64,000 nt of DNA, from assembly GCA_921293015.1 (NCBI GenBank), contig OV121084.1:52487864-52551863 (forward strand). Reading direction: 5' to 3'. Below the pieces are notes generated by a model. It was given only the letters and a program-made list of their open reading frames with translations, searched no databases and was not told the origin of the DNA. A program made the translations under genes and the position numbers. The stretch comes from Phorcus lineatus. Lineage: Eukaryota; Mollusca; Gastropoda; Trochida; Trochidae. Below are positions 9,901-45,500 of this stretch, one piece after another (position 1 is the first letter of the stretch; each line of letters begins with the position of its first letter).

Positions 9901-12900
9901 TAAGACAAGAAGTCTTTATTTCAGAAATACCCAATATCATTGAACCGCAAGTTCATTCTATTAACACTTAATAGTACTGGTGTCATAATTCTTTATATGG
10001 AGAGCAGTTGGTTGCATATATGAGTTGAGTCAGATCACAAGAATATAGAGATAGTAACAATCCATGTGCATTTTCTTGATATTGACAGCTGAATTTTTAA
10101 GAATAAACAGGTAATTATTTGAAAAATAAAAAAATAATTCATTTTCAAACCCCCTTAGGTGAAGGTAGCCACAGCCCAGGCTCCGCCTGAAGATGTGATC
10201 CCACCAACGCTAAACGTTGAGAGTTCCACCACAATCCGCCTGACATGGGAGCCGCCTACCACACCAAACGGTGTAATCACCATGTACAGAGTTATCTTCC
10301 CTGATTTGGGCCGAGCCTACAACCACACCCCTGACAGCATGGAGATGACTGTCACTAGTGAGTCAAAAACAAAAATTGGAAATTGCATTGAAATGTTGTC
10401 TTCTGAACAAACATACACAGATCCCTCTTAGACAAAGAGAATCATAACTTAAAGTTCTAAACAAGTTAAGATCATCATATGTATATTGAAGGACTTTGTG
10501 AAATTGGATAAGGTAATGTTAAGTTCAAATTGAAAACACCCAATTTATGGTTTGTTAATTTGATATAGAAAAACAGATATTCCAATTATCAAAAGTCTTA
10601 TATCATTTGCTTGATTAATGTCACATATTTTCTACAATTCATTGATAAAACAATGGTCAGTATTTCAGGACGAAATTTCAGCACTTGGTCCAATGTGTTC
10701 TTTGATCTACTTTCAGACATGAAACCATTCACAGAGTATGTTGCTTATCTTGAGGTCTGTTCGGAAGCTGGATGTACACAAAGTGAAAATGCCACAGCCA
10801 TCACTGATGAGGCACCCCCAGAAGGTATGAAAATTGTTTATTATTACTCTTTATCAATAAATATTAATTGATAATTTGATGAAAACTTACTCTATCAACA
10901 TTAAATATATGAATCATTTGTCTGTCCCCAGGCATCAAGCCTCCGAGAGTGGTGATTATCAACTCAACAACTGTGCAGCTCTACTGGCGTGAGCCAAGTG
11001 TTCTGAATGGGGTGTTGCTCGGATACAAGATAACTAGGGTGGGAACCACTGGGGTTCTCGTCATTTACGAGGGGTTGGACACGACTGTTGCTGACAATGA
11101 ACTGACACCAGGTGGCGTGTACACATACTCAGTTACAGCAGGAACCCAGGGAGGAGAGACACCTAGTGAGAACATTGCAGTGATCCTGCCAGTGATGACC
11201 CCGCCGACCATTCCCCCACCCCAGCGGGTGGTGGTGCTGAGTGCAGAGGAGATCTCAGTGTCCTGGGACCCAGTGCTCACAGATGTGGGAGAGATTGACC
11301 AGTACAAAGTGTTGCTCAATGTTGGTCAGGAGACTGAGGTGGAAGAGAGTGTCGGCACCCAGACCTTTGTTATCGTCTCAAACCTCAGACCCTTCACAGA
11401 CTATGAGGTTCGTATCCAGGCATGTCTGAAGGATGTCCAGAATGGATGTGGAACAAGTGATGGTGTAACCGTGAAGACAGAAGAAGCACCTCCCCTGAAT
11501 CAGCATCCCCCAGAGTTAGAAGCCCAGGCTGCTGACACCATACACATATCCTGGAGGGAACCAACCAGTCCTAATGGGGAGATAACTCTCTACAGGATCT
11601 ACCAGAGAAGGTCGGGTGACTCAAATGAGATCCTCATTAACCAGGTCCCGGGCAACATCTTCGAGTTCACTCACTCAGGGACAGACCTGCTCCCATACAC
11701 TCTGTATGAGTACCGCATCAAGGCTCTAAATGGTGAGGGAGAAACTGTGAGTGACTGGGCTAGAGTGAGGACACTTGAAGCTCCTCCTGAGGAATTCAGT
11801 GCACCTTTTGTTTCTCCTGCTGGTCCCTATGGATTCTCCCTTCAGTGGACTTCTCCAGCAAAACCTAATGGAGTCATCACCCGATACCGCGTCCTGTACA
11901 AAGCAGTGTCTTCAGATCCCACAGTCCAGAACCCTCAGAAAACACTGGCAGTGGAGCCTGATGTCACATCTACCTCTATAAGTGGACTACTGCCCAACAC
12001 AAACTATGAGATATGGCTGGAGGCTGTGAACAAGGCTGGGAGTGTCACAAGCTCTGCTGTACCTGTAACAACTGGGGAGGCATCACCAGCGGGACTTGGA
12101 ACCTTTCAGGTAGAGAAAATCTTTACAGGACAAGCTGTGATTCTGCGTTGGAATTTACCCCTCAAACCCAATGGTGTTGTGACAAATTTCCGCATCTATG
12201 AAGTTGGATCTGATGTTCCAATTTATCAAGGACTGAACAGAGAGTTTGAGTTCAGGAGACTAACTCCATTCACTGAGTATTTTGTGCAGCTAGAAGCATG
12301 TACACTATCCGGCTGCACATTAGGCCAAATTCAATCATTTACTACAGCTGAAATATCTCCATCGAACCAACAGCCTCCGACTCTGGGCTTTGTAAACTCC
12401 ACTCATGTTGTGATAGAGTGGAATGCTCCAAGCAATCCAAATGGTAGAATAACTTCATTTGAAGTCCTCAGACGTGCAGACACACTGACTGCATCCAGAA
12501 GAAAACGTGAACTGAGTGAACCAACAGTTGTCTATAAGACTACAGAGACAGACAGAGATAAGTATAGTTTCACAGACCTTGACGTGCAACCCTATACTGA
12601 GTACCAGTACAAGATCAGAGCCAACAACTCACGAGGATCAGCCGACTCTCCCTGGCAGACTGTGTTCACTGCTCAAGCTGCACCAGAAGGGGTTGCTCCC
12701 CCAACCCTGACCCACACAGATGATGTCAACTCCCTTCTTGTCACCTGGACTCCTCCTGATGTTCCTAACGGAGTCATTCAAAGCTACCAGCTCCAGAGAA
12801 ACAACAGTGTCCCGCTCAGCTTCCCAGCAAATCCAACATTCCAACACATAGACAGTGGACTAGAGGCATACACTGTCTACTCCTACCGGGTTACAGTGTG

Positions 12901-15900
12901 TTCTGGAGGTGGGTGTACAACTAGTGATGTAACCTCCATGAGAACCAAGGAAGCGGCTCCACTCCAGGTCATGCCTCCAGAACTGGTACACATGGGTTCC
13001 ACTGCAATAAAGGCAACATGGGAGAAGCCTCAGATAACCAACGGTGAGGTGAACAGGTATGAGCTGCTAATGGATGGAGCTTCGGTGTATGAAGGGTTAG
13101 CTATGGAGTTTGTGGTTGGAGATCTCATCCCTTACCATGAGTACTCGTTCATCCTTAGAGCCTGCACAACAGGCGGATGTTCAGACAGCAGGGAAGTGAT
13201 GGGTCGCCCAGATGACGCTAAACCTGTTGGGATGAACATACCAATCCTGAGGGTGATGAGCTCCTCTTCTATAGAAGTGTCATGGTCTCCTCCTACCAAC
13301 CCAAATGGAATCATTACATCTTATGATGTCATCCGAGATGGAACGCTAATCTTCACAGACAGTCTGGAGACTTCGGGAGTGCTGAGGACCCTGTACACTG
13401 ACTACAGTTTAGATGCAGGGGAGGAGTACACCTATTCTGTGGTTGCCCGCAACAGGAAGGGGAGTGTTGAGAGTCCCCCATCTAAAGCAAAGACATACTC
13501 CTCCTCACCATCTGGTCTCAACCCCCCGTCCCTCCTCCCGATGTCCCCCTCCTCGATCCAGGTGACCTGGGAGCCCCCAGTCCGACCCAACGGAGACATC
13601 ATTAAGTACCAGCTGTACACAGGCAATGACAAGGTGTATGAAGGAGGTCCGGATCAGCTATCGTACACAGTCCCTGGCCTCGACTTCTACACCGAGTACA
13701 CCTTTAGGGTGGAGGCCTGCACCGAACGAGGTTGTGAGCTGAGCGAAGGTGTTACTGAGAGGACATTAGAAGCTCTTCCTGAGGGCCAGGCACCTCCGAC
13801 ACTGTTGGCTCTAGCCAATGAGCAGCGAGCTCATAGCGGAGTCCTTGTCACATGGAAAGCTCCAGAGGAGCCCAATGGTGTGATCATTCGATACGAATTG
13901 TTGCGACGTCATGTTGTTCTTGAGGATACAGGTGAGCATTTGTAACTGCAGTTTCATTATGTTTGAATTTTTTAAAAAGAATACAAAATTGTAGTATGCA
14001 TTAAATTTTTAAAAACATGTGAAACGGAATTAGAAAATATCATGTATGTAGTTTATAACATGAATTGTAATAGAATATATTAATCCTTTGAGAAGGATTC
14101 AAAGATCAGCTTGACTTGAGCAATGCTGAGCAATCCATGTTTTAAAGCAATATTTTCTCATCATCATTAATGACACAACTCTGATTTCCCCAGGTTCAGT
14201 GTATGGAGATGCAGTGAGTGTGTTCAATGGCTCAGCCCTCAGTTTGACTGACAGTGACCCTCTGATTAAACCATTCTCCACCTATCAATACATGGTCACT
14301 TCCTTCAACAGTGTGGGCGGAGTCAGCAGCATCTGGGCGCAGGTTATCACCAAGGAGGCTCCGCCCACTTCTGTAGCTCCACCCACTATTGAGGTTAGTG
14401 TGTTATTTGCTTATATATTGTAAACAAATATTATATGGTTAACTTTATTAAATTATGATTTAAGCAAAATAAAATTTTTTCAGTGATAGTTAAATAAAAA
14501 GTTTTAAGCGTAATAAAATTATGATGTGGCCAAACACTCTTGTACAACTCCTTTCCTCCAAAGGTAGCTTCTTCATTTTCATTTCTTGTAGCGGACAACC
14601 TCCACCACTATTACAGTTGGCATCACACCACCTCTCAAGCCTAACGGGATAATTCGAGAATACAATGTGCTTGTTAACAACACTGTGGTAAGTATCACAG
14701 AAAACTCATAAAGAAGTGCTTGCTGTGTAGAAGCGATATGAAGCAAAGCCTGTAAAGACAATCAGTGGGTTGTAGTAGCTTGGCAGAATGAGAAGTTGCC
14801 ACCTGGTTGTAAACTACAGAGTTGTTTCATTACCAATATATTGTTATGGCAGTCTTATTTCAATGTATATGTACTAAAGAAGTTATAAAAAAACAATTGC
14901 CATCTTTAGATAACTAATCCTGTCCTATTTCATTGGAAATGTACTATAGATGCCTTAAAACCATACTTTGCCCTCTGTGCATAACTAAACCTTTCATTAA
15001 CAGTTTCTTCTACTCACACATTTCCCGACAGGCTTCCTCTGGTGTGATCCTGAACCAGACCGCAGGGCTGACTCGCCCTCTGCTCCCCTTCATGACCTAT
15101 CTGGTCCAGGTTCGAGCCTGCACTGGTGGTGGGTGCACTGACAGCTCAGGAGTCAAGGTCATCACTGGCACTGCCAAGCCAATGGGTCTTGCACCAGTAG
15201 AGATCAGCTCCAAGACTGGGACGACAGTTACACTGGAGTGGAAGAAACCCACTCAGCCTAATGGGCACATCCAGAGGTGAGGATTGATGATGAAGTGGAC
15301 TAGGTGTCAGGGACATACATTTGAATTATGGCCAACCTGCTTAAAAATTTAATTTGTAGGCTGTTTATATCATAACTGTTGTAATTAAAACCCTTGGTAG
15401 TGCCTTTTCAAGGAGTATGTAAATGTCATTTTGGAAGCAATATGGTAGGTGTTACTTGAAATTAAAATGGAACTGGTATTTATAGTTTATGAATCATCAT
15501 TTTGATAATCCTTGATACAACAGACATTTGAAACTGTTTGCCACCCACCACCACTGGCCATGTGTCACCCTGTCACATGAAAATTATATTTGTAATTGTG
15601 GCATGTGCACTAGGATGTTACATACCCCCCCCCCCCCCTCTTTCTGATACAGATACCCAGGCTATTCCTCTGACCCCTCCCCCTGCTACAGATACCACAG
15701 TCTGGTCGTTAACTATCCTCTACCCCTCCTCCAGATATCTGCTGTACCAGAGAAAGGGGTGTCCCCCCACAGACCAGCCCTTTCAGCAGAGCTGCTTGCC
15801 GGGGGATGTGTTCGAGGTGTACAGCGGACTGGAGATGTTTGCAACCGCAGAGGAGCTGCTCCCATACACACGCTACCAGTTCCAGATTCAGGCTGAGAAC

Positions 15901-22992: not shown

Positions 22993-25900
22993 TCACACAT
23001 CCCCGGAGTAGAAGTACAGTTCGTCATTCAGTCCCATGATGAGTCCTGTGTTGCCACTTCGGTTTCCCCAGCGAGTCGAGTACTGCACAGTCGGGATTGT
23101 CTCCCTTGAAGCCAGACAAGGAGGAGGTAGTGACTTGAGCAGCTCCCCCGTCTTCAAACTCCAGAATCGTGTGTAGCAGTCCTGCCCAGCTGTAGTGGAG
23201 AAAAGAGTTTATCATGAAGGATGATCACAACTAAACTCTGTAAATTAAGACGAGGTCCACACTAGCTAATAATCAATTTTAAAGATTTATATGGATTATT
23301 AGAAGAACAATAGAATACAACAGAATGAAAATAGTCCTAAACCTTAACTTATCATGCTGAGTAAATAATATTAATGAGGATAATTCTATTGCACTTGACT
23401 CCGCACCACACAGGCCAAACATTAGGACAAACATCTCTCCTATCTACATTCTCCACTCCTTAGGAATATGTAACCCAGCAACTGAGTTGCACTTTAAGGG
23501 TACACTGACATCACTTCCAAACCAGGTACCCAATTCTACTGCAGGGTGAAAAAGGAGTTTCAAACAAAGTTCCTCAACTAGTGTCTCAGTGTGGCATGGG
23601 GCAGGTAATTCACCCATCTATAACATTAACTTGTATTCTTTGCAATTATTTTATCAATCATGACACTAATCAAAGGAATAGTTTGAATATGTTGCAAATT
23701 AAATAAACAACATAAGAATTAATTACAGAGTTCTCTTTAATTATCCAGAAACCCATATTCCCTGCCAAAACCTGGCTGATTGAAAGCTACACATTAGGAC
23801 TGCGATTCTGAATTCAAGATGTTTAACATAAAATTGGAAGAAAATCAGTAAAGCCATATAATAAACCCATGGGGGGAGAAAAATCACAAAGAAATCGCAA
23901 TTGGGTTTCCATATGCTCAGTGATAAGACTATAAGATTGCTGACCATCTTATGTATATATTTTGCTTGTTCATTGTGCTACAGACATGAACTTTGGCTTG
24001 TTTTAATAACCATTATCAGATCCATATTATTTAATTTTTTACAAAGCTTTAAAAAAGGTAACCTCTTTTATTTGCAACCTTGCAAAACCAAATATACCTC
24101 TGGGTAGGCAAATGAAATTTATATATATTTTTCTCAATCCTACAAATATAAGATTCTCAAAATTTTCAATTCCTAGCATGGTTGGTCACTTAAAAAAGAC
24201 AACAGAAGATTTGAGGCTGGGTACAAAATTCTACTTACAAATTGAAATTGGTAAATCATGTCACACCCTGTTATTGTGTATCTTATTTCCGAATAAGATC
24301 AAAATGAGATAATTTGTTTAGAACTTATGAGCAGGACAAGAATCTTTAAAGCATCTTTTGATGTTGTAGGAGGATATTTTAAAAATTAATAATTATGACA
24401 CAATAAACATATTTCTCCATTGCCATTACATTTGAATGGTTGATAATTTAAAAAGTTATGAGCCGCAAATGTGTGTCTGATAAACAATGCCCATTATAAC
24501 ACCTTCCCTAAATATTTTTTTCAAAATATAAACCAAGGAAAGATTGTTGATGACTTGTAATGCGTGACATTAATGCTTAATGTTCATAAACTTGTGGCTT
24601 CCAGTAGCACTTATTCCAAACTCTAACTGACCACACCCCTTGATTTGTGACTCACCATCACAAGGCACAATTCACTACAGTGAAGTTGTTGTTTGAGAGG
24701 CTTCACATGACTGTTCAACATCCCTTCCAAAGAAAATTGATTTCACTTCATTTCGAAAAGTCTTAGAACAAAATCCATAAACGAAAGGGTTCACAATACA
24801 GTTGACATACGGCATCTGAATCAGGAAGTCAAACACGTGGACGTGTGCCATATTCATTGATGACAGGTCTTTCAATTCTTTGAGATAAACGGCCATTCCG
24901 ATCCGAGGAATGATTGTGATCATGTAAAACACTGCCAGAATACAGAACACTTTCGTCACCATTATCATGCGCGATCGGCTTTGGTTCAAAACGTGCGAGA
25001 TGTTTAGATCATGCTTTTTGATATGCCGTCCAATCAGGGCATAGAGTACAATCAGCGTTGTCACAATACTGACAAGAAGTACAAACACCCATGTTGTAAA
25101 AGCCAAGGCAGTATGAGATTTCTTTGATTCCTTAGTAAAATCACACTTTGGTACTTTCCCTAAATAAGTTTCATTTCCAGTCTGAATTTTTACGCTTAGA
25201 TAACTTTCTGTCGCAATAAAAAGCAATGGTATTCCACTAAGAAAGGAAAAGGCAAGACAGCCAAGGATAAGCCTCTTAGCACAAGAAACTTTTATCTGGT
25301 ACCCATGAGGATGACATATTTGTTTATATCTCTGAACAGCAATGGTCACATACAACGACCCTGTCACACAGAAATTGAAATTTTGTGTCATGGCAATAAA
25401 CTTGCATAACGGTGGTGTATGGAATTCTGGGACAAATTTGGACGCTGCAAAGGCTAATGAGAACCCTATCATGTTCATGATGTCAAGAATAGCAAGTGTT
25501 TTGATAAATATTCCAAATATGTTATTAAAGCATTTTGTGTATACATAGAGAATCATTACATTGCCAGGGATACCGATAAACAGAAAGAGTCCATTGAAAA
25601 CAAATACTGTTGGATGAATTCCAAAGTAGTCCAAAGAACTTGGTTTGAAAAGTGGATATATTGTCGTATCATTCTCCATCTTAACCCTTTGACCTCATGA
25701 TCACCCAAAGCATAGTTACATGTGTTGGATCTAAAATGAGAAAAAAACTTAACATGAAAAAATACAGTCACAATTATATGAAACTTAAATTTAATTTCAT
25801 TGCTGCAATTCCACAAGATATAAAAACATCTATAAACAGATAAACTGTCTTTTCTTGACAAATATCACATCTATCTTATTAAGCGGGGTTAGAAGTTTAT

Positions 25901-28900: not shown

Positions 28901-31900
28901 GGCTAGTAACTTATTGAAAGGACTAGTGAATTTCAAAATCTACTAGCCCACAGGACTAGTAAACATTTCTGGTGAGCCTCTATCCCTGCATAACAGTTTT
29001 GGATGAAGCAGCTTATTGGCGTATGCCGTTTCAGACCGATGAGGTACCGAATCAAGTGCAATCCCATCGCGAGTACGAAACACCGGAAATCTAGTCATCG
29101 CAGCGCCGATACTTATGACAGACGCATTCTTCACTGAGTTTACCACCTTTTTGTTATTTCTGTATTTGAAAAAGTGTAAGCTATTAGCTATTTTCATTGG
29201 ATATTCAGCTGGGAAATTTTATGTGTTCTTCCTCACGGCCTTGGCGAAATGACGTGGTAAGGACTAACGCTTGCAAAAAACATAATATTCGGGTAGGGTA
29301 GGGTAGTTTGAACTTCATTATTGAGGGCTAGAATGCCTGCAGACTTCTGAAAATTGTTGCAAACGTCAGGGGAAAGATTTCTGTGAGTGGTGAACTATTT
29401 GTCCGGCATTTATTACATTTTGCTTTGCAAAAATGAGACTATGACTTTAACTAACCTATGCAACAATCTTTGAACTTCAGCAATGTTAGCAATACCTCTG
29501 ATTTTTGCTTAGAATCTTATTGGTATTCCTTGCCTTGCCTTCTTTATGAACTTTTAAACATTAATCATGATGCCCATTGTGCAGGCCACAATGGAAAGTT
29601 ATCACACTGCTCTGGTGTTTCCTAGATATCTAAAGTTGGGTATTAACGAACAAACTATGATACTATGCAAGGAAATCATTTTGTAAAAAAATGAAATTCA
29701 TACATAGAGAATTATGTGAATCAGTGGACAAAGAAGTGGCCTGAGAACAGGTTTTGGAACAAAGGAGAAAAAGAGACACTCAGTTGAAATCTTAAATTTA
29801 CAATCTTTTGAAAAATAACACTGATTATCTCAAAAGTATTGGTATTTTCTGCTATATGAATAATGACTAATGACATTTTAATTTGACATTCTTATAGTTT
29901 GAAATACTTCAACAAGATGATGGTCAATTACTTTGTAACTACTTCCTTAAAAGTCAAGTTTGACACAAACAGGAAATGAGAAAATAGAATAGACTGGTGA
30001 TGAAGAATCTGTAAGAATAATTACTTTACTTAACTGATAAAAGACAATTTTTGAAATTTGTGTATGGAACAACAACCATGTTTTTTACTTTCCAAATTTT
30101 GTGACATGTTAAATAGACCAAGAGAAAGTCTAAACATTGCTTTTCTGCATAAACTACAATAATGGATGCTGTGGCTTTATCAATTTGTACAGCCTGATGA
30201 AAACAAAACATATGTGTTGATAGAAGATAGAAAAAATTACCAATCAGTAATAAGGGTGCGCAGTATTATCAGTATATCGGTATATTGCAATACAGAAACA
30301 ACTCGATACGTACCGTACATTCTTCTGAAAATATCCCATATATCAAATGTTTTAAACAATTTTCGTGTAAAATTGCAGAAAAATGTAACCAAAAAATGTG
30401 ATTTTACTGAATTTTGTAAAACAAAGTGTTAACTCGCAAAATGAAAGTAGCACAGACATGTAAAAGTCTAAAAGCAGCCACTGAATTAGCTCTCTTTACA
30501 AAACGACGGGCCAATTGTGCATTGATCACTGTTCTAATTGTTGTTATTTAGTCAAGAGTGCATGGAAAAAAATTAAATATGAAAATTACCGACATATTGC
30601 AATACGCTTTTCTGTATCGCAATATATTGCAATATGGAAATGAGGAGCGATACCCATCCTTTATCAGTTGTGATGAGACTAATCAACAATGCCCTGTCTT
30701 GCTGCAGCAATTAACTAAGGCTTTCAACACTACACAATGAACACAGGTGAATAGCTTCAATTCTCAATGTTTTCCTTTTCTGAGTATGACTATGAGTGTT
30801 TTTGTTTATCAAATTGCGGATCTTCAGAATACAAAATATTACCCCAGTAACATGTTTCAAGTTGACTGTGTTAGAACTAACTAGTTAAGAATTTGCAACC
30901 CAAAACTGAGGTTCTGACTTTCTCCTGTTCAGTCTTTCCCGAGAAGCCATAATGGAACCATTATCAAACGGGCAATTTTGACTAAATATACCACATGAGA
31001 TAACTGAAAATCAAAGCAAAGAAACTGCACTTACAACTATAAGCACTATGGATATCATGACTATTAGGTTGATATCACAATGTTGATCATTATTTTTAGT
31101 GATTTCAGAATGTGAGACTTTGAGGTGAGGTGAGTTGGTGTTTAACGCTGCTTTCAAGATTATTTCACTTATATTGCGGCTGCTAGTATTATTGCAGGGA
31201 AAAAGCCTGCAACACCATTGTGGCTTTGCATTGCAGTGAAACCTGCGAGCATTGGCTGGAACTAGCGAACCATGGGTAGTAGTGCTCTGAAATTCAGTGT
31301 AGCATTTCACCCAAACCTGAATGCGTGTAGAACAGTTCTCTACTGCAGACAAAGTTGCCGAGCCCCTGGCGGGATTCGAACCACGGACCTCTTGATCCAA
31401 AGCCGAATGCACTAACCATTGCGGTATCGCGCCCCCTGGAAACATGATAAGTAAGTTTGAATCGCCTGACCACTGACCAGTCTTTCTTATCATTAGCAAC
31501 TTACATTTTTTTTCATCAGAAATAATGTGTTACAATAAACAAAATGCAAAAATCATAAGGAATGCAACAGAAGGAAATAATCAAAGATTCATTATCTTTC
31601 TTAAATGGAACTGATGTACAAATATTTCATAAGAACTCTATCATAAATGGACTTTTGTTCACAAAATTCAACATGAAGCAATTTTCTGTAGAAGTAAACA
31701 GGAAAGGCAGACCACTGGATCAACGACAATAACAACATAACAAACAAAAACTATCACTTGTTATAGTTGCTCAAAAATGACTTGAAAGCTGCCTCTTAGT
31801 GATTAATTATTTCAATTTTACAAGCTTACATACAATCAGTATAAGGTATGTAACTTCAAACTTTCATTCAATTCACTTTCAGCTCCTTTATATTATTGTG

Positions 31901-34900
31901 TGCATAAGCTAATCAATATGCAATTAAAGAAAATATTTTCCTCCTTTCACGATGTAAACATACTCAAAATGAGCCAAGCAGTTCAAAAGATATAAGGTGG
32001 GAAAGGAAGAGATATGATAAACGTGCCACTCAGTTCAAAAGTTAAGAAAGAGAAGTTTCCTTTTTGTGTGGTGCTTGCTGTTTCTTTCTTTTATCGAAAA
32101 TGTAAAAATATGTTGAATATGGTTTTCAAGTCATGAGCCTGCAGAGTCAATTTTATATAACTTTTTTTCCTCGGAACACCGTCGATTTTAATCAGACTAA
32201 GTCTTAGTAGGGTGACAGGTCCCATATGAGTGTGTGAGCGAGTTATTGTTTAATGCCTCTTTGACAATATTTCAGCCATTAGAGTTGTGATAGGTCCACG
32301 AGCTGTAGTGCATATGACACTTGGCATGGGTACTTGGACTTTTAGCATTGTGTTTTTCAATACTGTAGAGGTGAACAATGTCTGTCAAACTTTGTGACCC
32401 TTTGACCAAACCATTTACCACAATATCCACACACACAAAAAAAACATCATAGAAGGATGTGTAACAAACCTAGGTGTACTTAACTAGAACACCTTAGTTT
32501 ATAAACTAATTGGGACCCACTGGGGAGCTAGTTGGTAATGACTTTCTCTTGGGTACCTAGTAGTAGGGATAATTCATCCCGGAATATACCAAGGATATTA
32601 CAGACTATTATCCTCAATTAGGCACAAGAACTGTTCTCTCCCATCTTGATAAAGATCAATCAGTGCCTTAAAGAAGAACATAAAGAAAAAGATGTCTCCT
32701 AACCTCCATAGAGGAGCTGATCTGTCTCATCCAGCTGGAGCGGGATACGGCTGTAGCGGTTGAATAGAGAGGGATAATCCATCACTGCACGCCGCACACG
32801 GATATCCCACATATACACCTGAAGACAAATATCATTTACAATTCCCATAAAACATAATTGGCAATAAATGTGATGTTATTCTAAAAGTCAATTACTAGGA
32901 AAAAAACTCTTAAAGTGAGTCAAAATTTCCCACAAAGGGGACAGCTTGAATAATTTGTCTCAAATAAGTAATTAAACTTATGAAAAGATGATTGGTCTCT
33001 CATTTTGATTTCTAATTGTTAAGAAATGTTACAAGTGACATATTTTCTTAAAAGTTTTGCAGCTATACCTTCCCAGAGATATCAGCAGAGAGGATGTAGT
33101 TTCCACAACTTGTCATCTTGAGGGCACACACGCTGGTCCGGTGCTTGTCAAGGGTTAAGGCTCGTGCAGAGAGACATCGGAGGTCATTACCAAGAACCAT
33201 TCCATTCCTGCCACCACTGAACAGGTACTCTCCATTCTAGGTCCAAAGATATCAGAGATATTATCATTTAGCTACCTATTTGCTAGGTTTCACAAATCAT
33301 CTTCCATATAACAATTAATCGAGCCCATTTGGTCTTTGAGACCAGATGAGCTAAAATATTTACCTAAAGAACAGGGCCTAGATTTTTTAAGCTCTCTTAG
33401 TACTAAGAAAGTTGTATGTATCATACAATAACATTGGCTTAAGACAATCTTATCACTACGAGAGCTTAAAAAATATGGGTCCAGATAGGTTGTCAGCTCA
33501 AGAATCAACAACTATAAGAACCTTTTATAGCTATCACGACTGATAATGAGATCTGAAAGTTCTATAACCTTCTACCACTCACATCTGGAGAGAAGAGTTG
33601 AGCAAAGGGGTCCGTGACACACTGAAACTCCCATAGTCTTCGAGTCTCAACGTCAATCAACATTCCCTTCTTCTCGCTCCCCACACTGAACTGTTGCTTG
33701 TGGGAGTTCCATGCACAAGTCCATGCCACATGACATCCCAGGTTGTAGTCGAAGTTACACGAGATATCCTCGCACCTCGTCCTATCGAGGTTCCTTATAA
33801 ACGCTAAACTGAAGTTGTAGGAAGTGTGGCACATAGCTGTATACAGTACATTATGTTTGGAGGGAGAGTTTGAGAATGGCGCCCAACACACATTCGACAC
33901 CTTACTGGAGGTTTGTATGACTGCGGTATCTGCGACACTCACATGAACCGACATCGGGTTATCGTTATCAGCCACTCGAGGTTTTTCGGATAGATACACA
34001 AGCTGCAGTCGTCGCCTCATGCTGTCCTTAACTGACCACAAGCTCAACAACTTGTCGTAGTCTGGATTCGAATCCATGAGCATCATATGCTCCAAGGGTT
34101 CACCGATACCATCAGGGGTGTCGATGAGAGACCAGGACCCACATGGCTTCATAGTCCGAACATTATGCATCAAGAGTTGGTTCTCCATTTCTACAGCCGT
34201 CACTCTCCCCCGCTCACTGCCTATCAGTAAGTGGGATAAGTTCTGAGTCCTCGAGGATACCCCTCTATGATCACTTTTTGATTGTGTTGAGCTTGAAAGA
34301 TTAGAAATATCTTTGAGTCTTTTTTTCTCAGCAGCATCTGATTCTATCTTCTCTTTGGTGACCACATTGACACTGTTAGTACTTGACAAGATCTTGAAGT
34401 ATTTCTTCTTCTCCACATCATAGTAAAACCCTGGTAACTGTGACAATCATTAAGGTTTTAACTTTTTTTTTTTTAATCAGCAACAAACCCAGCTCTTTTG
34501 GAAAATATAATTCTATTATCAACAAGAAATATTCACTAACATGTTCACATTTTAAAGATGAACAGGTCAGAAAAAAAATAATTTTGTTTTGCAATTATAC
34601 ATTATATAACCATCAGATGGGCACACAAACAGTCATGTGGCCAGGACATTTTCTCATGAACCTAATGCAACACAGACATATTTGATCATTCACACAAATA
34701 AAACTTCAAAATTTCAAGTAAGCCAAAGAACAAACGAGTTATGAATTGTACTTAATTAAAAAAAAACGGCAACTATTGAAACTTTGAATCATAATTCAAA
34801 ATATGCTATCACAGTCAAACTTCCTGCAGTCAATAATGCAACTGAAACAGTACAGATTTAGATCAAGTCTTTAAAGTGCATTTAGAAGAGCCATAAACAA

Positions 34901-35435
34901 GAACAGCAACAGCTAATGGATAACAACTTGAAATCATGGGCTTCATCCTTCCTGATAAAGTAGTTGGCATATCATACTTGTTACGTGCTATGGACAAAGC
35001 ATGCTTAGTTGCTTTCATTGTTATGTATTTGTTACTTTGTGGATATTCTATCATTACTATTAGGCCTACATATATTTCTTTTATTCATATAGTTGTAAAA
35101 CTAGGAAAACAGAAGTGGATGTTTTTCACATTGTGCAAAATAACAAAATGGCTGACATGGAAGCTGATAAATCTGAGACTTAAAAGGATATCTGGAGCTT
35201 GTCCTGTTTCAGATCCCGAAGTTGACGCACCATGAGAGTTGCCAGCTAAAGTCTCATCTTGAGACCTCTTCCACCTCTTACGACGACTCCCAGAGAATTG
35301 TTCTGAAGAATTTCCACTGAATTGTCGATCCTCATGGAGTGAATCATTGTCCCTCGGCCTATTTGCCCTTCTTTCCTCTGAGAACTGTTTACGTCTCTTG
35401 CCACGTCTTTTGTTCCTATACTGATTGTTACTCAT
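22993..35435 (-). CDS. DCAF4: DDB1- and CUL4-associated factor 4 (DCAF4), five coding exons
   Basis: DCAF4 is a WD40 substrate receptor of the CUL4-DDB1 ubiquitin ligase, in nucleus and cytoplasm. Coding exons, in order: 35435-35192, 34439-33583, 33236-33069, 32818-32704, 23189-22993 (526 aa; human about 495). The basic N-terminus (NQYRNKRRGKRRK), the start of the folded part (ELPGFYYDVEKKKYFK), the WD units (GNYILSADISGKVYMWDIR) and the end (GQDCYTRFWSLKTGELL, then LNDELYFYSGDV-stop) all match the DCAF4 pattern. I chose ATG 35435 because an acceptor-like TTTCAG lies just upstream, implying a 5' UTR exon. Most of exon 2 (about residues 95-365) is diverged. The first coding intron is AT-AC. 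The last intron (23190-32703) holds a same-strand GPCR gene. It is head-to-head with RRP15. Confidence 0.92.
24675..25679 (-). CDS. Class A (rhodopsin-like) GPCR, single exon, 334 aa
   Basis: A plasma-membrane receptor of unknown ligand. ATG at 25679, TAG stop at 24677-24675. Seven hydrophobic segments are visible. TM1 has IPGNVMILYVY and TM2 has LAILDIMNM. Cysteines PLCKF (TM3) and PKCDF (extracellular loop 2) can form the usual disulphide. TM3 ends AVQRYKQICHP, a QRY variant of DRY. TM6 is FCILAVFYMITIIPRIG, without the usual CWxP. TM7 is NCIVNPFVYGFC, a good NPxxY, then a helix-8-like KTFRNEV. The N-terminus (MENDTT) has a possible N-glycosylation site. It lies wholly inside the last DCAF4 intron on the same strand and has no intron in its coding part. 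Short loops fit an orphan lophotrochozoan peptide- or amine-like receptor; I cannot name the subfamily. Confidence 0.88.
   Translation of the reverse strand: MENDTTIYPLFKPSSLDYFGIHPTVFVFNGLFLFIGIPGNVMILYVYTKCFNNIFGIFIKTLAILDIMNMIGFSLAFAASKFVPEFHTPPLCKFIAMTQNFNFCVTGSLYVTIAVQRYKQICHPHGYQIKVSCAKRLILGCLAFSFLSGIPLLFIATESYLSVKIQTGNETYLGKVPKCDFTKESKKSHTALAFTTWVFVLLVSIVTTLIVLYALIGRHIKKHDLNISHVLNQSRSRMIMVTKVFCILAVFYMITIIPRIGMAVYLKELKDLSSMNMAHVHVFDFLIQMPYVNCIVNPFVYGFCSKTFRNEVKSIFFGRDVEQSCEASQTTTSL
26665..26940 (+). repeat. SINE-like element
   Basis: It contains a box-B-like GGTCCAAATCCCAGTGG, then the motif CAACCCAGCTGTTAAATGGG plus TACCTG that is widespread in invertebrate SINEs. It ends in a short TTATTATTA tail (ATCATTATCATTTATTATTA). 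It lies in the DCAF4 last intron. Its 5' end is not sharp. Confidence 0.65.
27054..28988. mobile_element. Probable non-autonomous hAT-like DNA transposon
   Basis: The left end CAGGGATCGACACTCACGC and the right end, read inverted, CAGGGATAGAGGCTCACC are similar. Both flank repeated CTAGTCC/GGACTAG motifs (27075-27150 and 28900-28960). The interior, about 1.9 kb, is AT-rich with no coding region. No 8-bp target duplication could be confirmed, so the boundaries may join two insertions. Confidence 0.5.
30247..30660. repeat. Dispersed element family C, copy 1
   Basis: It starts AAGGGTGCGCAGTATTATCA with GGTATATTGCAATACAG, runs through TGTAAAATTGCAGAAAAATG, and ends with inverted-like TGTATCGCAATATATTGCAA and GCGATACCC. 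The first about 170 bp match 62914-63090. Imperfect inverted ends suggest a DNA-transposon-derived repeat. Confidence 0.7.
31112..31437 (-). repeat. tRNA-headed SINE
   Basis: On the minus strand it begins GGGGGCGCGATACCGCAATG with an A box (TGGTTAGTGCATTCGG) and a B box (GGTTCGAATCC), i.e. a tRNA-like head. After a body of about 230 bp it ends in the conserved stretch AATATAAGTGAAATAATCTT / GCAGCGTTAAACACC. The same 3' module recurs at 32225-32300 and 58396-58499, showing a shared SINE tail domain. A functional tRNA is excluded: no complete cloverleaf. Confidence 0.85.
32225..32350 (-). repeat. SINE tail fragment
   Basis: GTGTGTGAGCGAGTTATTGT and TTAATGCCTCTTTGACAATA with TTTCAGCC repeat the 3' module of the SINE at 31112-31437 in the same orientation, more diverged. 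No tRNA head is seen. Confidence 0.6.
33368..33485. repeat. Palindromic MITE-like repeat in a DCAF4 intron
   Basis: GGGCCTAGATTTTTTAAGCT with CTC pairs with GAGAGCTTAAAAAATATGGG with TCC. The centre is also symmetric (CTTAGTACTAAG). It lies between DCAF4 exons 2 and 3. This pattern is common in mollusc genomes as I recall them. Confidence 0.7.
34440..35191 (-). other. DCAF4: AT-AC, U12-type intron of DCAF4
   Basis: No usable GT donor exists after the first coding exon. The frame runs ...CAAGCTCCAG then ATATCCTTTT, a full match to the U12 donor consensus ATATCCTTT. At the other end, CCTTAAT (U12 branch consensus TTCCTTRAY) lies about 10 nt before a terminal AC at 34441-34440, followed by AGTTACCAGGG. 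Joining G to AG gives GAG, hence APELPGFYYD, the expected DCAF4 sequence. The intron is 752 nt. Confidence 0.9.
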
Positions 35436-36580
35436 GCTCAAGTCCTTTGAATTTCTTTCTTCTCTATGTCCTGAAACAAAACAGAGATTAGGAACAGTTA
35501 CAAAGAAAAAATGCCAGTGATATTCTTAGGCAGACTTGTGCAAGCAAGCAATACAGTAGGGCTGGGACAGGTACGTACCCTGGATACCTATGATGGGTGG
35601 GTAAAGAGTTAGACCCGGGTACCAATCACATTACTTGGACTTTTTTTGTTCATTTGACAAATATGTGCAGAATTGATTAAAATCTCAGCACATGTTATAT
35701 CTAATTCACAATGAAATTGCAAGTAATGATTGCGATTTAATAAAAATCATATTGTGTGAAAATTTGCTTTGGTCCAAATACATACAACTGCAGGAGGCCA
35801 GAAGGTATAGTGCCAACAACAGTCTGACATAGTTTTATTAATACTGGAACCATAGTCAACACCAGGACAAACAGTGTCCAATCTTCATACTTTATTATAT
35901 TTTCTCATAGATTAACCAATAGGGGGAAAGTCCTTTGAAAACTGTCAGTGTCACTAACAAACGCATTTAAACATGTACATTTTACATTAATATTATCAGT
36001 GAAGCTCTAAAACTTTAACAATGAAGCCGTTTTAATCCCATATACTGTATTTTTCTCGGAAGAATGAACATGTATCTCTTAGGTGCGTAGCTTTACCCGA
36101 CAGCACTGTACTAACAAGAGCTAAATGACCAATGTAGTAGATCTTTACCTAAATTAAAGTTAACTGATAAGTGTCCTTTTTTACTTGAACGATTTTGTGA
36201 TATTATTGTAGACAAGCAATGACTCAATAATTATATAATGACAATGCCAAAAATATATCATAAAACAGCTACCACATGAAGTTATTGAACTTATTACGCG
36301 TTATCGTTGTTCAGAGCTTCTCTCTTTTCTTCAGTCTCATCTTGGGTAATTGCAAAATTTGAATCTCGATTAAATGGTAATTCCTGACGCAAAAATATAC
36401 AATTTTTGTGCATATATTTTTTAAATAATGTTTTAGATTAATCTGGGTCAATTTTTCTGATTTCCCCGCATACAACTACAAGAGATATATCGATAAAACA
36501 TATAGGTAAATATACATATAATTTCTTTTCGTTCTAGAGATCAGGATTTTGTACATCTTATAATAACTTCCGGTATAAAC
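35436..36580. promoter_or_regulatory. Head-to-head interval of DCAF4 and RRP15
   Basis: The two start codons diverge, 1145 bp apart. Minus-strand TTTGTTTCAG at 35473-35482 looks like an acceptor just before the DCAF4 ATG exon, so the DCAF4 5' UTR is spliced and its transcription start lies further right, toward RRP15. I see no TATA box. A shared promoter near 36450-36580 is inference. Confidence 0.5.
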
Positions 36581-39500
36581 ATGGCCCACGTGCAAGTTCG
36601 CGAAGAATTGTCATCTTCACAATCAGAAGCTGAATCGGGTAGTGATAGTCTCTTGAGTGGTAAGAATGGTTTCTTCCGTGTGAATATTGTTGCTGTTATC
36701 AAAAAATGTATCCTTGCGAAGAAATTAGGACAATGATGTGAAATACATTAAGAAGGAAAATCTATGTAATCGTCATCTAAGTTCGTGATCAAGTCGATAC
36801 TAGCTAAAACCTCTTCTGACGCTTACTAAAACAGCTACAACCCAAACGACTACAGAAAGTCGGGCTAAAAACGGCTAAAGTTGGGAGGAACGTTTACAAC
36901 TATTTTTTTTAATTTCGAAAAAAATAACTTCCAACAATTTCAATATTATGTTTTTAATCCAATCGGTCATTGTTCATCACGTTAAATGAATTGCTTTGTT
37001 GAACAGATTGCTTTATTGACAATACTTTTGGTTTGATCCGTTCAAGAATATGGATTAGAAATTTTCTTCACCCTCTAAAATTTTATAAGATTTGGTGGAT
37101 TAACAATTAAATTCTTGTAATTTTACAACACACAATATTTTTAATGATTGCAATTAGTTTTATGGCAATTATATGCTCTTTTTCTACACATAGATGTCAA
37201 TAAGAAATGTTTTGACTACAGAGATTTATATGAATAAAATATAAGTTTCGTAAATATCCCAGAAACTTGTCTAACAGAACTACAATTTTCATAGTACATA
37301 GCAAATAACGTGAGAAGCCACTTTCTGTTTAAGTTTATTTCATTCAATTTACTGAATAAGCATTGTCATTGAGATGATCCCTGAATTTATCCACTTTACT
37401 AAAACAACAAGGTGTGATTGGCCTTGGTCATTAAGATCATAAACGAATCTTCATGGACTTCACACTTCCTGGGCGACTGTATAGTTTGCCACAAAGAAGA
37501 ATGAAGATGGCATACGATAAATGAGTTAATGGGAAATCTGTGCAACGCTGGAATTGTGACCAACCAACTGGTCAACCCATTCAAAAGATCTACTTATACA
37601 AGTACAAATAGTAGCTCTTAGCATTCTAAAAAGTTCAAAAGTATTTTGAGACTTGAATCTGGCATGTCATTTAAGAATATTAAATGTTGACAACATTTGT
37701 ATTTATTCCTTCTTCAGCCTTCTAAATCTGTCGATTGAAAACATTGCCATCTTGCAATTTGCAGTTGAATGTTACAACTTTTCAGATTTTGTCATGGTTC
37801 TTTTAACAGACAAAGTATGGCGCTCATTTATTTAATTTTATTACCAAGCTTGTTGACATTAAAGCACTTATCACCAAATTTGGTATGGTGTTTTTCTATG
37901 TAATGTAGTGGTACCTTTTAGAGGTTTTAGGATCTTTACAATAATGTGGCAACACTGTTTACTTTGTTTTTTAAGTAAGTGTTTGTTTCTAAAGTATAAT
38001 TCTGAAACTATTTGACCCATTGTCGTCATATTTGGAATGCTAACTCTCAATATAATGTAGATGTGATTTTGGGGGGTTTGAGCTTTTGGCAAATTTATTT
38101 TTTCTCTTTTTATCAGACATGGCAACAATTATATTTTTTCTTTGCACAAAGAAGCTTCTTTAGAGCATAATACTGCTTAGAGATTTTAAAAATTAGGTAA
38201 AGGAGCTAGGTGACTCTCGTGTTCAACCCTTGCTGCGTTTCCTTAACCTTTCTATTAGAGTTCTCTAGGTTCCACTGCCTGAACTTGATAATCCTGTCAG
38301 TGATCTCTTCCACATCCCAACTTAACAAAGAAAACGGGAGTCTCAAGCAAGGTTTTTGTTAGCCATTGATGAAGATTCACATGAGTTCGGTCTTGCAGGG
38401 GAAGGTGTTGACATTGTACTTGGTTGTGTCCTGTGGATGCTGCTGTAGGAAGTTTGTAAACTGGTTCGCAGCAGTTATTCGGGCTGAGTATGGAAGTATT
38501 CAGCCATCAATATTATCTTTTAATGTACCTTGAAATACATTTTTCAATATTTTCAGATGAAGATAAAAAGGATGAGGAAGAAAAACATGGAGACGAAGCT
38601 CCGTCTGGTGGTCTTGCTGATGTCATGGCAGCCATCTTGAATAAGTCGGTAGCAAAGAAGGGTAATGTAATTCTAGCCAAGGGTCAAACAGATAAGGAAA
38701 TCCAAGTGCGGAAGAGAAAAAGAGACAAAGAGGAGGGGAAGCTGAAAGACAGCGACTCTGAACCTGAGCCAGAGAAGAAACAAGAAAAACTTAACAAGGT
38801 GGTTTCAAAGTTTATGATGTTTGTGATAATGTTGTTGGAATTAATAAAAGTTTGAAGTAATCCATTTTATTGAAAGTATTTCTTTAGGCTGGTGCTTAAT
38901 ATTTTTACACAGAATTTAAGGATTTACATATAGTTTTATTTCTTATCCGTAAGGAGTTAATATTTGTGCCACAGATTTCTATGAAACATGCCTTTTTTAC
39001 CTTAAGATGGTGAATTATTCAGAACTCGACCAATCCCAGTGGTCAGTTTACAGGAATTAAGTCTTTTATTGAATATTTCTAGATTCATAGATACATGTTG
39101 AAGTCATTTGAAATGTTGTTTTCAGAAAAGAGAATGGAATAATATGAACAGAGTAAAACCGAACCCACTTGAGCGTGAGAGAGAGCGCCGTTTACAGAGA
39201 ATAGCAACAAGGTTTGATTTCTTCATTCTTGCCTGTGTTTTAGTCAATTTAAATTATTGTTTGGATGTTCAGAGAAAATAGAGTCTGTGAAATGTAAACC
39301 AATGATTGTTTATCAGGTATTTTGACTATTGTTTACATTTTATTTCCTCCCTTGGGCTTTAGTCCGTAAAATTTCTTACTCGAGCGAGTGAAGCATTACT
39401 TCTCAATTGTAATGAGTGCAATGTTCAGTATAAATACTAACACCATTATAAAGCAAGTATTAGTATCTACACAGAAAAATTGCACTCAAAGAAAACGAAA

Positions 39501-42500
39501 GGTGACTTTCCATAAAACCTGGTTTTCCTTAAAATCTACTTTTATAGATGTGATGTGTTAAGATTCAAACCATACACTGTCCATCATTCTCGAAAGTATT
39601 CTGTTTTGACTGCTGACACTGTATTTGAGCAAATATTTTATTTTCATTTCATTGCACTTGTAAAGACTAATTTATTGACTTTATCCCTGAAGAGGAGTCG
39701 TCCAGTTGTTCAATGCAGTTCGACAGCAACAGAAAACACTCGAGGACAAACTGTCAGAAGCTGGTTCTTCGATAAAGAAGTCAGAAAAAGCCCTTGAGTC
39801 CATGAATAAAGGAAAGTTCCTAGACTTACTGAAGGGCTCTAAACCAACAACACAGTCGGACAACAAGAGGAGGAAAGACAAGGTAAGAAGTTCCAGGATA
39901 AAGATTTGTCACATTTTAATCATTAGTTTACCATGTATTTATGATTAGGCTTTAGTCCATTTACGTTGTCTTTAAGCCTTTCAAATTTCCCACTTTACCG
40001 CTATAACCAATAAAACTTCGATGTTTGATGAGATCATAGTTTGAAAGGCTAAGAATCTTCTCTTTTTTTTTTAGAATAATAAATTTGTTGGATGAGGACC
40101 ATATAACATAAACCATTTACTTGATAATCAAACGAGCCTTACCTGTAAGGTGAAGGTTGATTGTAATTCTACGTAGTCTCTGAAAGGAATGGAGTATTCA
40201 CGTGAGATAGCGCATGCGTACTAGCCTCATTCTTTAAAAAAACTGAATGGACACATATTTGGAGTATTCTTGTATGGGTGGGTTAATACCAGTGCTCTGG
40301 GAGGGCACGTGAATACTCCATTCCTTTCAGAGACTACGTAGAATTACAATCAACCTTCACCTTACAGGTAAGGCTCGTTTGATTATCAATTCTACTACGT
40401 CTCTGACGTCATTCGTATCCACGTGAGACTTGAAAGCATATGGGTCCATGAAGAAAATACCAACAATCACGACAAAGACATTTTATGTCAGGGTTAGATA
40501 CCCAAATTTAATTGAACATTAACTCAATTCAAAGATTGCAAAAACATCGAACCATAATTTTTCAATGATACAACCGGTTTACGGTAGAATTTTTGGAAAG
40601 TACTCTCTCTTTTCCAACCAGCACTTTTCATGATAATGTCCACTGGAATTCCATTAGACACGGCAGTAGAAGTGGAGGCTGCCCTCACGCTGTGGGCCTT
40701 ATAAACACTTGTATCAACACCAGACTGCTTTAACACAGACTTAAGCCACCTTCCTATTGTGTCGCACGACACAGGACCATGCGGTTTATGGTAACTCACA
40801 AGTAGTTGGTTGTCAGATCGCAGAGTTTCAGTTCTTTGTAAATAAGTTTTTAAACATGAAACTACACAAAGGTCAGAGTCCTCATAAGGCACGAGCTCTA
40901 CTGGCAGCACATGAGTGCCAGGTTTAGATTGTTTCACAGATTCAGTTATCACAAACACAACCCTGTCACAGAATTCTTTCATGTTATCAATTTTTAACAG
41001 CCTTAAAGTCTGACATCTCTGGCCCGTGACTAGCGCTAACAACATCACCAGCTTTAAGGTCAACTCTTTCAAATTTATCACTGAAGTGTCTTGACTCTTA
41101 ATGAATTTCAAAACGGTATTTGGGTCCCAAATCTCTGTATATCGCAGAACAGAAGGCTTAACCTCAAACAGTCCTTTCATAAAACGACATACAAGCGGGT
41201 GTTCCCCAAAAGTTCTGTTGTTCGGTAGTAAGATAATACTCAAAAGAGCACTTCTCGCGGTATTTACAGCACTATAACCACATCTCAGAGAAAGTTCAGC
41301 AAGAAAGTCAATTCCAAGTTCTACAGGTGAACAAAAGGGATCAGCTTGCCGTTTACTGCAATACAACTGCCACTGTTTAAGATATGTTGAGTACTGCTGC
41401 TGTGTACTTGGTCGCCAGCTTCTAGCGATAATCTCTGTAGACCGCTTTGAAAGTCCCTTACCATCAAGCAGTTGCCCGACAAGCGGCATGCTACAAGTCT
41501 TAGAGTTTTGTGCAAAGGATGAACTTCTTTTGGTTGACTGGGTAGTACTAGAGTCCTCTGCCCCTTGGGTAGTAGTACTGGATAGGCTATGAGCAACCTC
41601 ACAAGGCGTGGCCACCAGGTCTGCGTTGTCCAGTAAGGAACAATGATCGTCCCCGTCGCCCCCTCCCCCTCTGCTTTCTGCAACACCAGCGGTATTATAC
41701 TGAAAGGAGGGAAAACATGGAAATCATAATCTTTCCACGAGACAGAGAAACAATCGACAGCATAAGCTTCTGGATCTGGCAAAAAGGAGATATATGGCTT
41801 CAGTTGATAATTTAATCTTGAGACAAATAAATCAACATTAGGAAAGTGATTCAATCTTTTAAACAGTCGAGTAAAAATTTGCTCATTCAGTTTCCATTCA
41901 GCTTATTGGCGAATTTTTCGAGATTCAAAGTCAGCCTCAACATTATGAATACCAGGTATATGAGAAGCGGTCAGCCAAATATTTTCTAATATGCAGAATT
42001 CCCATATCTGTCTTGTAACACTGTTACACAATTTTGAGTGACTAGTTCCCATATGGGAGATACACGAGATGGCAGTTGTATTATCACTTAGGATTTTAAC
42101 ACTCTTACCACAAATTTCTCTGTGAAAAGATTTTATGGCCATTAAGATAGCATATAAATCAAGATAGTTGATATGTAGACACGCCTCCTGAGGGGTCCAC
42201 TGACCCCCAGTTCTAACACTATCTAATGTAGCACCCCAGCCGGTATGACTAGCATCAGTAGTGACGATATGCTCGGGCACAGGCCTATCTACAACATTGT
42301 AACCTGTTTCAATGGAATTTTCCCACCATAACAAATCTGCTTTGGCAATATCAGACAAAAACATAGTTTTATCAAAGTTCCAACCAACTCTACTTAGTGC
42401 CTCAGCTTTCTCTATTTCCAACTGTCTATAATACAGAGGGCCGTACATGACCCCGGGGAAACTGGCTACCATGAGACCAACGAGTTGAGCGACTTCCTTA

Positions 42501-45500
42501 ATGAAAGGGAGATAACTCTCTCTGAGCTTTTGAACAGCATTTTTTAATTTTAGAGCTTTTTCACGGGTAAGTTTTACTGTCATGTCAACAGAATTTAAGA
42601 TGAAACCCAAGAAAATTATTTCCTGTGTGGGCTTGAAGACCGACTTGTGAGGGTGAACAACAAATCCCAGACTATTCATCATATCAACAGTTTGTCTCAC
42701 ACTTTCTTTACATTCACCGAAATTTTCTCCAAATAGGATAGAGTCATCAATATAAGCACTGGAGACATGGCCCTTTTTCCTAAGAGCAGAAAAAACTGGT
42801 TTTAAAAGTTTTGTAAACTTCCTAGGACAGTAACATAGCCCATTTGCAAAACATGTATATTGATAGAGTTTTCCTTCCCATTCAAATTTGAGATATTTTC
42901 TGTCTTTTTTAGCTATGGGAACACAATAATAAGCATCTTTCAGATCGACAGATGCCATATAACAGCCTTTTTGCATGAGCCTGACAGCCGAAGATAAAGA
43001 ATCCATCATAAAATGATGGTACTCAACATGTTTATTGAAACTTTTCAAGTTCAAAATCATTCTGAATGTATTATCTTTCTTAGGCGTAAGAAAAACATTA
43101 GAAATGTATTCGCCTGATTCATGATTAGTCAACTCAATGACCTTTTTCCCCAATAAATTTTGTATTTCCAAGGAAATAATTTCTCTTTCACTTTCACAAA
43201 ATTTAAAGCCACATGGCAAATTTGATTGATAAGGGAAACTTTCAAGCTCAATACTTGCACCTTTTACCATATCTAAAACTTCCGGGTCAGAAGTCAACTG
43301 TCGCCAGCTTTCAAATTAATATCTCAATCTACCGGCCTCAAATTGTTCAACTTTATCTATCAGATAATTGATGAAGTTAGTATCAACATCACTCACCTTC
43401 AAGGCGCTAGTGGAGTCTACTGCTCCCCCCTCTCTCCTTTCTTCTTGGAGAATTTTTGAAACTTGAACTTGTTGTTCGACCAAGTTTTTTCGCCTTGATT
43501 CTGGTAACGGTTCAACTGCCCCTGACCGTTCCGATTGAATAAAAAAGACTTCTTCTGAGGAAAGTTTTTGGTATCATTTTTCATCATGCCACCAATCTTA
43601 CTCATGTCCTTGACGTCCTTAAGCAGTTTGCTCAAATCATCCCCAAATAAAAATTTGGTAACCGGCACATGTGCAGCACACATTTCACCGTATTCTTTAC
43701 CAACTACATGACGTAAACTTTCACGTCGCTTAAGCGAAAGGTCATGGGTCACATGACCCAGCAAGGCCAGTGTGTCAGCTGACAATTGCAACATTGTTTT
43801 CCAATCCGGCATTTTGCCTTCAACACGTGCTTTCAATGCAGAGTCTGCAAATTTCGAGACACACGTGCTCGCTTTTATGATGGATTTCTGAATGTTGCAA
43901 AAACGCAAATCTTTCCTTTTGTCTCTGTTGTTCATCTTTTTCCAAATTTCTAAGTTCACTTTCGGCACATTTAATTTCCGATAAAGGCCGATGGTATTTT
44001 TCATTCAAAGCTTTAATCTTGTCCACTGATAGTTTACCAGAAAAACGTTTATCAACTAATTTGGACAAACTCTCAGAAATAGGTTCTGAGGTCACATCTT
44101 CGACGTCATAAGACTGCTCGATGTCTTGCAAAAAAGCATCGCACGATTCAGGGTCTAGCCCCACATTTCCCCCGTCAGGAACCGGGGAAGCCGAACTCGG
44201 TGGATTGTTTCTCAATAAATCCAATACATCATCGTCGTCAGACGAAACAACTGAGTCAGTTTTCAAAATTTTTCTTGGACCATTTTCAACCTCAGAAACA
44301 TTCATAGGTCGTTTACCCGGGTTTTGAGTGGCCGTCTGCCACGCCGCATTCATGCTAGCCATAGAGTCTGCCATAAGAGACATGTTGTCACTCAATTTCC
44401 CAAGGAAAGACATCAACTGGTTATTTTCCGAGGATTTAGTAACTGGTGAGTCACCCTCTAACAAAATATCCTCATCAGTTGTGAGACACACCTCCTCTGC
44501 CCCCAGTTCAATGTCCAAATCCACCGACGAGGTGGATTGGCCCGCCATTTTGTTTCAGAGACGTTCACGTTGAAAGCTAATCTCTTGAAAGAGGCGACAG
44601 GTAGGGTAGGGAAGTAATTAAAACAAGATTTCGCTCACTTGGTATAAAGTTGGTAGCGTCTACCAACTAACTCACCGAGTAATAGCGTCTATTCTCGGTA
44701 TTAGAGGCAAAAATGACGTAAAATCGACGGACAGGTTGACCGACGTTCATTACGCTCCAGGCATGCAGCTTAGAATGAGGCTAGTACGCATGCGCTATCT
44801 CACGTGGATACGAATGACGTCAGAGACGTAGTAGAATTCATGTCTAAGTCTTTCACATTACATGCAAAGACTGAGGAACTACAGGAACAATGGCTCCATT
44901 TTGTTTAAGATTTCATCCTAGCATAGGCGTAAGAACACTTCAAAACTTGGGGGGCAAGATTTTCATTTGTTGGGGGGGGGATGGAGGCTTAGAAGAAACG
45001 TCGTGCAGTATCATGACAGAAGGCTTTGCTCTTTTAGAACATTTAATCAATGTTAGTCATCGTTAATACAGTGTCACCTGTTATCTGTCACGGTGGTACA
45101 TTACAGTCGTATGGTTTTCACGAGAGCTTCCATGACAAATATATCAATGGCTATCATGTACATCATGCTTAAAATATGGATTCTATCGTTAACGGAATTA
45201 AACACGTTATTTTTATTTTACCTGAGAGAACTAAAAACATGTCTTCATCTCAATTATAGTGCTTAAAATTAATTTTCAAAATGTAAAATCCTGGGGGGCA
45301 GTGTGCCTAGTGCTCTTTATGTGTGACAATGACCAGGGAGTCTTGTGATATCCAACGACAAGATAAACAATGTCAAGACTTAATCGTCACTCTCCCTATG
45401 GTCACTATAAGGGATGCCATTGTAGAAATAACGCCTCACAGTCGAGGCTATTTTATTTTCAGTAAGATTTTGAAGTAGAAGAGGATGATTGGCTCCCAAA

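What the first reader, a model, noticed from the sequence alone, without database searches (positions are those of the whole stretch)
34440..35191. AT-AC (U12-type) intron in DCAF4, recovered from protein logic
The junction cannot be made with GT-AG: no in-frame GT donor exists. Using ATATCCTTTT as donor and a terminal AC preceded by CCTTAAT gives APELPGFYYD, which agrees with DCAF4. Donor, branch site and spacing all fit the minor spliceosome. Standard gene predictors will miss or mis-splice this exon pair. It also shows that the species keeps U12 splicing.
Basis: partly seen in the sequence, partly recalled or inferred. Interest (0 to 1): 0.75.

Follow-up and report, generated by a model that had tools for sequence, protein, structure and literature searches.

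The report
Minor-spliceosome AT-AC intron in DCAF4
The gene DCAF4 in this animal appears to be interrupted by one intron of the rare kind that begins with AT and ends with AC and is cut out by the minor spliceosome; it is a clean but ordinary example of a well-known class.

Summary
On the minus strand, 35191..34440 (752 nt) starts ATATCCTTTT and ends CCTTAATGATTGTCAC, at phase 1 of DCAF4. I extended the gene to 5 coding exons (526 aa, 35435 to 22993); the product matches Pfam Beta-prop_DCAF4 at E=1.5e-49. The other three introns between coding exons are GT-AG without a U12 donor.

Donor, branch core and in-phase AC coincide by chance about 2 times in a million under a Markov null.

Two corrections. 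'No in-frame GT donor' is false: 23 phase-compatible GT-AG junctions exist, though none restores PELPGF and all score below AT-AC (best 122 against 142). And the protein logic is thinner than it looks: the comparison sequence, human DCAF4, is recalled, and exon 1 itself has no significant similarity to it (572 of 2000 shuffles do as well). Only the two residues PE tie exon 1 in, so the splice signals carry the case.

No transcript, orthologous intron or minor snRNA could be examined. Minor introns are well known in animals: a new member of a known kind, low surprise.

The parts
35192..35435 (-). putative DCAF4 first coding exon (ATG at 35435, start codon chosen by me; ends ...GGACAAGCTCCAG, phase 1)
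   Evidence: open frame and junction; no significant similarity of its own to recalled human DCAF4
35182..35191 (-). U12-type 5' splice site ATATCCTTTT
   Evidence: 8 of 8 to ATATCCTT as given in PMC2831892
34440..35191 (-). AT-AC intron, 752 nt, phase 1
34449..34455 (-). branch-site core CCTTAAT; second A at 34450, 10 nt before the end of the intron
   Evidence: ACCTTAAT is 6 of 8 to TCCTTAAC, 7 of 8 if the last base may be T
34440..34441 (-). AC 3' splice site
33583..34439 (-). DCAF4 second coding exon (starts AG TTA CCA GGG)
33069..33236 (-). DCAF4 third coding exon (GT-AG introns on both sides)
32704..32818 (-). DCAF4 fourth coding exon
22993..23189 (-). DCAF4 last coding exon, after a 9514-nt GT-AG intron

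Best explanation
Bases 35191..34440 (minus strand) are a minor-spliceosome (U12-type) intron with AT-AC ends, lying at phase 1 between the first two coding exons of DCAF4, a CUL4-DDB1-associated WD40 protein. [quoted passage not shown] Shown here: sequence anatomy, open joined frame, gene identity of exons 2-5, and improbability of the signals by chance. Inferred: that exon 1 is the true partner, that the sites are used, and the machinery.
For: Exact sites and open joined frame. The 5-exon model matches PF23761 with 169.2 bits against a cut-off of 27, over residues 245-523; the partial 367-aa model fell just below that cut-off (25.7 bits). A tblastn of human DCAF4, recalled from memory, matches 4 of the 5 exons (2-5; not exon 1), and its exon-2 match begins with the codon at 34440-34438, one base from the proposed boundary; five shuffled copies gave no match below E 0.86. 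Of the AT-AC junction, two acceptor variants of it and all 23 GT-AG pairs, AT-AC scores best against the recalled N-terminus: 142, next 128, best GT-AG 122, and it alone holds PELPGF. Joint chance of the signals about 2e-6. The other 3 introns between coding exons are GT-AG, with 6, 3 and 6 donor mismatches to RTATCCTT. Phase 1 and lack of a polypyrimidine tract (50% C/T in the 20 nt before the AG at 34437) fit the class: minor introns average 22% phase 0 (section 29 of PMC10639083), and the review states no distinct tract and an optimum of 11-13 nt from branch to 3' splice site (passages of PMC3584512).
Against: No transcript data. No orthologous intron could be fetched: 6 and 264 pattern matches in viral and prokaryote contigs, none encoding a relative, as expected for an animal gene. 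Exon 1 alone scores 39 against recalled human residues 1-63, reached by 572 of 2000 shuffles, and exon 2 joined to a shuffled exon 1 plus E reaches 142 in 353 of 2000, so the alignment score does not prove exon 1. The branch motif has A instead of T before CCTTAAT, and its spacing is at the short edge of the optimum. Two later phase-1 acceptors with the same donor exist. A branch-like TCCTTCAT (one mismatch) also occurs in the ordinary last intron, so that element alone is weak. Motifs were chosen after the site was known.
Confidence: 0.88

Rival explanations
1. Exon 1 as drawn is not the partner, or is not the only one: exon 2 is joined to another upstream exon, or a small extra exon lies within the 752 nt.
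For: Exon 1 has no significant similarity to the recalled human N-terminus and was not found by tblastn. Internal exons were not enumerated.
Against: Open frame ending at a perfect U12 donor in the right phase, 752 nt before a U12-like branch and AC. The recalled human protein is contiguous over PELPGFY.
Confidence: 0.05
2. Same U12 donor and branch, but a different phase-1 acceptor: AC with exon from 34433 (..QAPAGFYYD) or AG with exon from 34430 (..QAPGFYYD), constitutively or as a minor alternative.
For: Both keep the frame; 16 and 19 nt from the second branch A.
Against: Both lose part of PELPGF; alignment scores 117 and 128 against 142 (recalled human sequence). AT-AG combinations appear disfavoured (passage of PMC3584512).
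Confidence: 0.04
3. Ordinary U2-type GT-AG splicing at another pair, for example GT 35230 with AG 34430 (..NSHGFYYD) or GT 35156 with AG 34437 (..SFHLPGFYYD).
For: 23 phase-compatible pairs exist; the donor ATG|GTGCGT, 39 nt upstream of the U12 donor, scores in the 98th percentile of all GT in the window and CAT|GTCAGC, 35 nt downstream, in the 91st (matrix recalled).
Against: All 23 score 62-122 against 142 and none holds PELPGF. Weak polypyrimidine tracts, 50% and 55% C/T. Leaves the perfect U12 donor and the branch core unexplained.
Confidence: 0.03

Closest known systems
U12-type AT-AC introns (minor spliceosome); passages of PMC3584512, PMC2831892 and PMC7367187, sections 23 (part 1 of 2), 29 and 30 of PMC10639083
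   Same: Donor ATATCCTT 8 of 8, CCTTAAY branch core close to the end, AC terminus, no clear polypyrimidine tract, phase 1.
   Different: Nothing of note; first base of the branch motif is A rather than T, and spacing is at the short end.
U2-type AT-AC introns (for example human SCN4A intron 21; passage of PMC2831892)
   Same: AT-AC termini.
   Different: Those in sodium channel genes have G at +5; here +5 is C within a full U12 donor.
DCAF4 / WDR21 (Pfam PF23761)
   Same: Residues 245-523 of the 526-aa model match positions 70-352 of 353.
   Different: The N-terminal part, where the intron lies, is outside this match.

Membership tests
U12-type AT-AC intron | 5' splice site ATATCCTT at +1 to +8 | tested here: met
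   ATATCCTTTT, 8 of 8; consensus from a passage of PMC2831892
U12-type AT-AC intron | Branch motif TCCTTAAC close to the 3' end (optimum 11-13 nt) | tested here: met
   ACCTTAAT, 6 of 8, or 7 of 8 if the last base may be T; 10 or 11 nt from second or first A (PMC3584512 passage). Imperfect, at the short edge of the optimum.
U12-type AT-AC intron | Terminal AC in frame with the next exon | tested here: met
   Joined frame open through both exons, phase 1
U12-type AT-AC intron | No distinct polypyrimidine tract | tested here: met
   50% C/T in the 20 nt before the AG at 34437
U12-type AT-AC intron | Spliced in RNA by the U12-dependent spliceosome | not testable with these tools
   No RNA data and no whole genome held; no Rfam match at gathering score in the window
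U12-type AT-AC intron | Conserved as a minor intron at the same position in orthologues | not testable with these tools
   No eukaryotic collection; scans of viral and prokaryote contigs gave no relative
U2-type AT-AC intron | G at +5 of the donor | tested here: not met
   +5 is C
DCAF4 | DCAF4 beta-propeller above the Pfam cut-off | tested here: met
   PF23761, 169.2 bits against 27

The most novel reading that the evidence does not exclude
The minor intron at PE|LPGFYYD of DCAF4 is an old, conserved position that the main texts I could search do not discuss, and its removal makes DCAF4 output depend on minor-spliceosome activity in this lineage.
Probability: 0.2. Interest if true: 0.3.

Novelty: new member of a known kind. 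Interest (0 to 1): 0.15.

Why it matters
It is a practical annotation point: a predictor limited to GT-AG would have to truncate or mis-splice DCAF4 here. [quoted passage not shown] section 23, part 1, of PMC10639083). It does not change any view of splicing or of DCAF4.

Tried and rejected
A search of the window's own genome failed because none is held. Scans for DCAF4 relatives in viral contigs and genome contigs gave 6 and 264 pattern matches and no relative. A search of solved structures gave two weak matches, both protease inhibitors (textilinin) at E 1.4 and 1.6, taken as chance. Rfam at gathering score found nothing in the window, and ARAGORN found no tRNA.

A second U12-like donor, GTATCCTTTT at 50186 (-), was considered as another U12 intron. 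I rejected it: by my own reading of the sequence it lies 95 nt inside an intron of a glycosyl-hydrolase-65-like gene whose exon ends at GAAGAG|GTGTGG; that gene model was not tested by alignment. It shows that a donor string alone is weak evidence.

Using the similarity of exon 1 to human DCAF4 as support was tried and failed.

Paper searches for DCAF4 with U12-type, minor intron and minor spliceosome, and for WDR21 with U12, gave 0 papers. DCAF4 with U12 gave 1 paper, in which DCAF4 stands only in a variant table and U12 was not found in the main text (passages). A full-text search for PELPGFY gave 0. Two wider searches listed 20 of 77 papers and 10 of 11; of those I read only the parts named in this report. 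Supplementary gene lists could not be read, so I cannot say that the intron is unlisted.

Full report
What is there.

The gene. A partial coding sequence matched Pfam Beta-prop_DCAF4 just below its cut-off (25.7 bits against 27). A tblastn of human DCAF4, which I recalled from memory and which is therefore a lead and not a record, matched four stretches on the minus strand that became exons 2 to 5, down to 23005; the exon-2 match begins with the codon at 34440-34438; five shuffled copies gave no match below E 0.86. Exon 1 was not matched. The resulting model has coding exons 35435..35192, 34439..33583, 33236..33069, 32818..32704 and 23189..22993, 526 aa, and matches PF23761 with 169.2 bits, E 1.5e-49, over residues 245-523. 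So the gene is DCAF4. The N-terminal part at the junction is outside the Pfam match.

Class of the intron. The donor agrees 8 of 8 with ATATCCTT; the branch motif ACCTTAAT agrees 6 of 8 with TCCTTAAC, or 7 of 8 if the last base may be T (consensus in passages of PMC2831892). The second branch A is 10 nt and the first 11 nt from the end of the intron, at the short edge of the published optimum of 11-13 nt (passages of PMC3584512). There is no clear polypyrimidine tract, and the phase is 1, in line with the bias of minor introns away from phase 0 (section 29 of PMC10639083). The +5 base is C, unlike the G of the U2-type AT-AC introns of sodium channel genes. The other three introns between coding exons of the model are GT-AG, with donors 6, 3 and 6 mismatches from RTATCCTT; the last of them holds a branch-like TCCTTCAT, one mismatch, 25 nt before its end by the script's measure, so the branch motif alone is weak evidence. 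Introns upstream of the start codon were not examined.

Chance. Each motif alone is unremarkable in 64 kb: ATATCCTTTT is seen once, null mean 0.6, and CCTTAAY 15 times, null mean 19. Their coincidence at the two ends of one reading-frame gap is not: 1 of 400,000 simulations with the intron's composition, and 1 of 300,000 (exact donor) or 12 of 300,000 (up to one mismatch) with looser zones. The motif set was fixed after the fact and exon 1 is taken as given, so these are guides.

GT donors compatible with the frame do exist: 19 GT in the exon-1 frame and 5 AG in the stretch scanned for exon 2 give 23 phase-matched pairs. Acceptors further upstream would run into a stop in the exon-2 frame 12 nt before LPG. 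Aligned with the recalled human N-terminus, AT-AC scores 142, the same donor with the later AG 128 and with the later AC 117, and the 23 GT-AG pairs 62 to 122; only AT-AC holds PELPGF, and 3 of the 23 keep LPGFYYD. But this preference rests on very few residues: exon 1 alone scores 39 against human residues 1-63, reached by 572 of 2000 shuffles, and exon 2 joined to a shuffled exon 1 plus the split-codon E reaches 142 in 353 of 2000. The protein therefore supports the acceptor and the split E, and hardly the rest of exon 1. What ties the two exons together is the pair of splice signals and the frame. Internal extra exons were not enumerated.

Novelty. [quoted passage not shown] AT-AC makes up about 26% of human minor introns (same part). 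I found no paper in the open-licence library whose main text links DCAF4 or WDR21 with minor splicing, but gene lists sit in supplements and databases that I could not read. The finding is a well-supported new member of a known kind, of low general interest.

Noticed in passing
window 24675-25694 (-): A 339-codon open frame of a rhodopsin-family receptor (Pfam 7tm_1, E 3.3e-22) lies inside the 9.5-kb last intron of DCAF4, on the same strand.
   Followed up: partly
window 40121-44841: Retroelement with reverse transcriptase, RNase H and tyrosine-recombinase (Phage_integrase) frames, a 100% complementary 84-nt inverted repeat and two 98% inverted pairs: DIRS-like (label recalled).
   Followed up: partly
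window 10913-13945 (+): A 1010-codon open frame with 10 fibronectin type III stretches looks like usherin (USH2A; name recalled). With the RRP15-like gene from 36581 on (name recalled; its 131-codon frame matched no Pfam family) this may be conserved microsynteny, since both are, as I recall, in human 1q41.
   Followed up: no
window 50186 (-): A GT-type U12 donor string GTATCCTTTT inside what I read as an intron of a glycosyl-hydrolase-65-like gene; apparently a chance decoy.
   Followed up: partly
window 31121-31187 and 58431-58497: Two copies (88%, opposite strands) of a dispersed repeat, the first beside a stretch that looks tRNA-derived to me (ARAGORN calls no tRNA); resembles SINEs that I recall from molluscs, so the species may be a mollusc.
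   Followed up: no
window 35435-36581: DCAF4 and the RRP15-like gene appear head to head, with putative start codons about 1.1 kb apart (35435; 36581), suggesting a shared promoter region.
   Followed up: no
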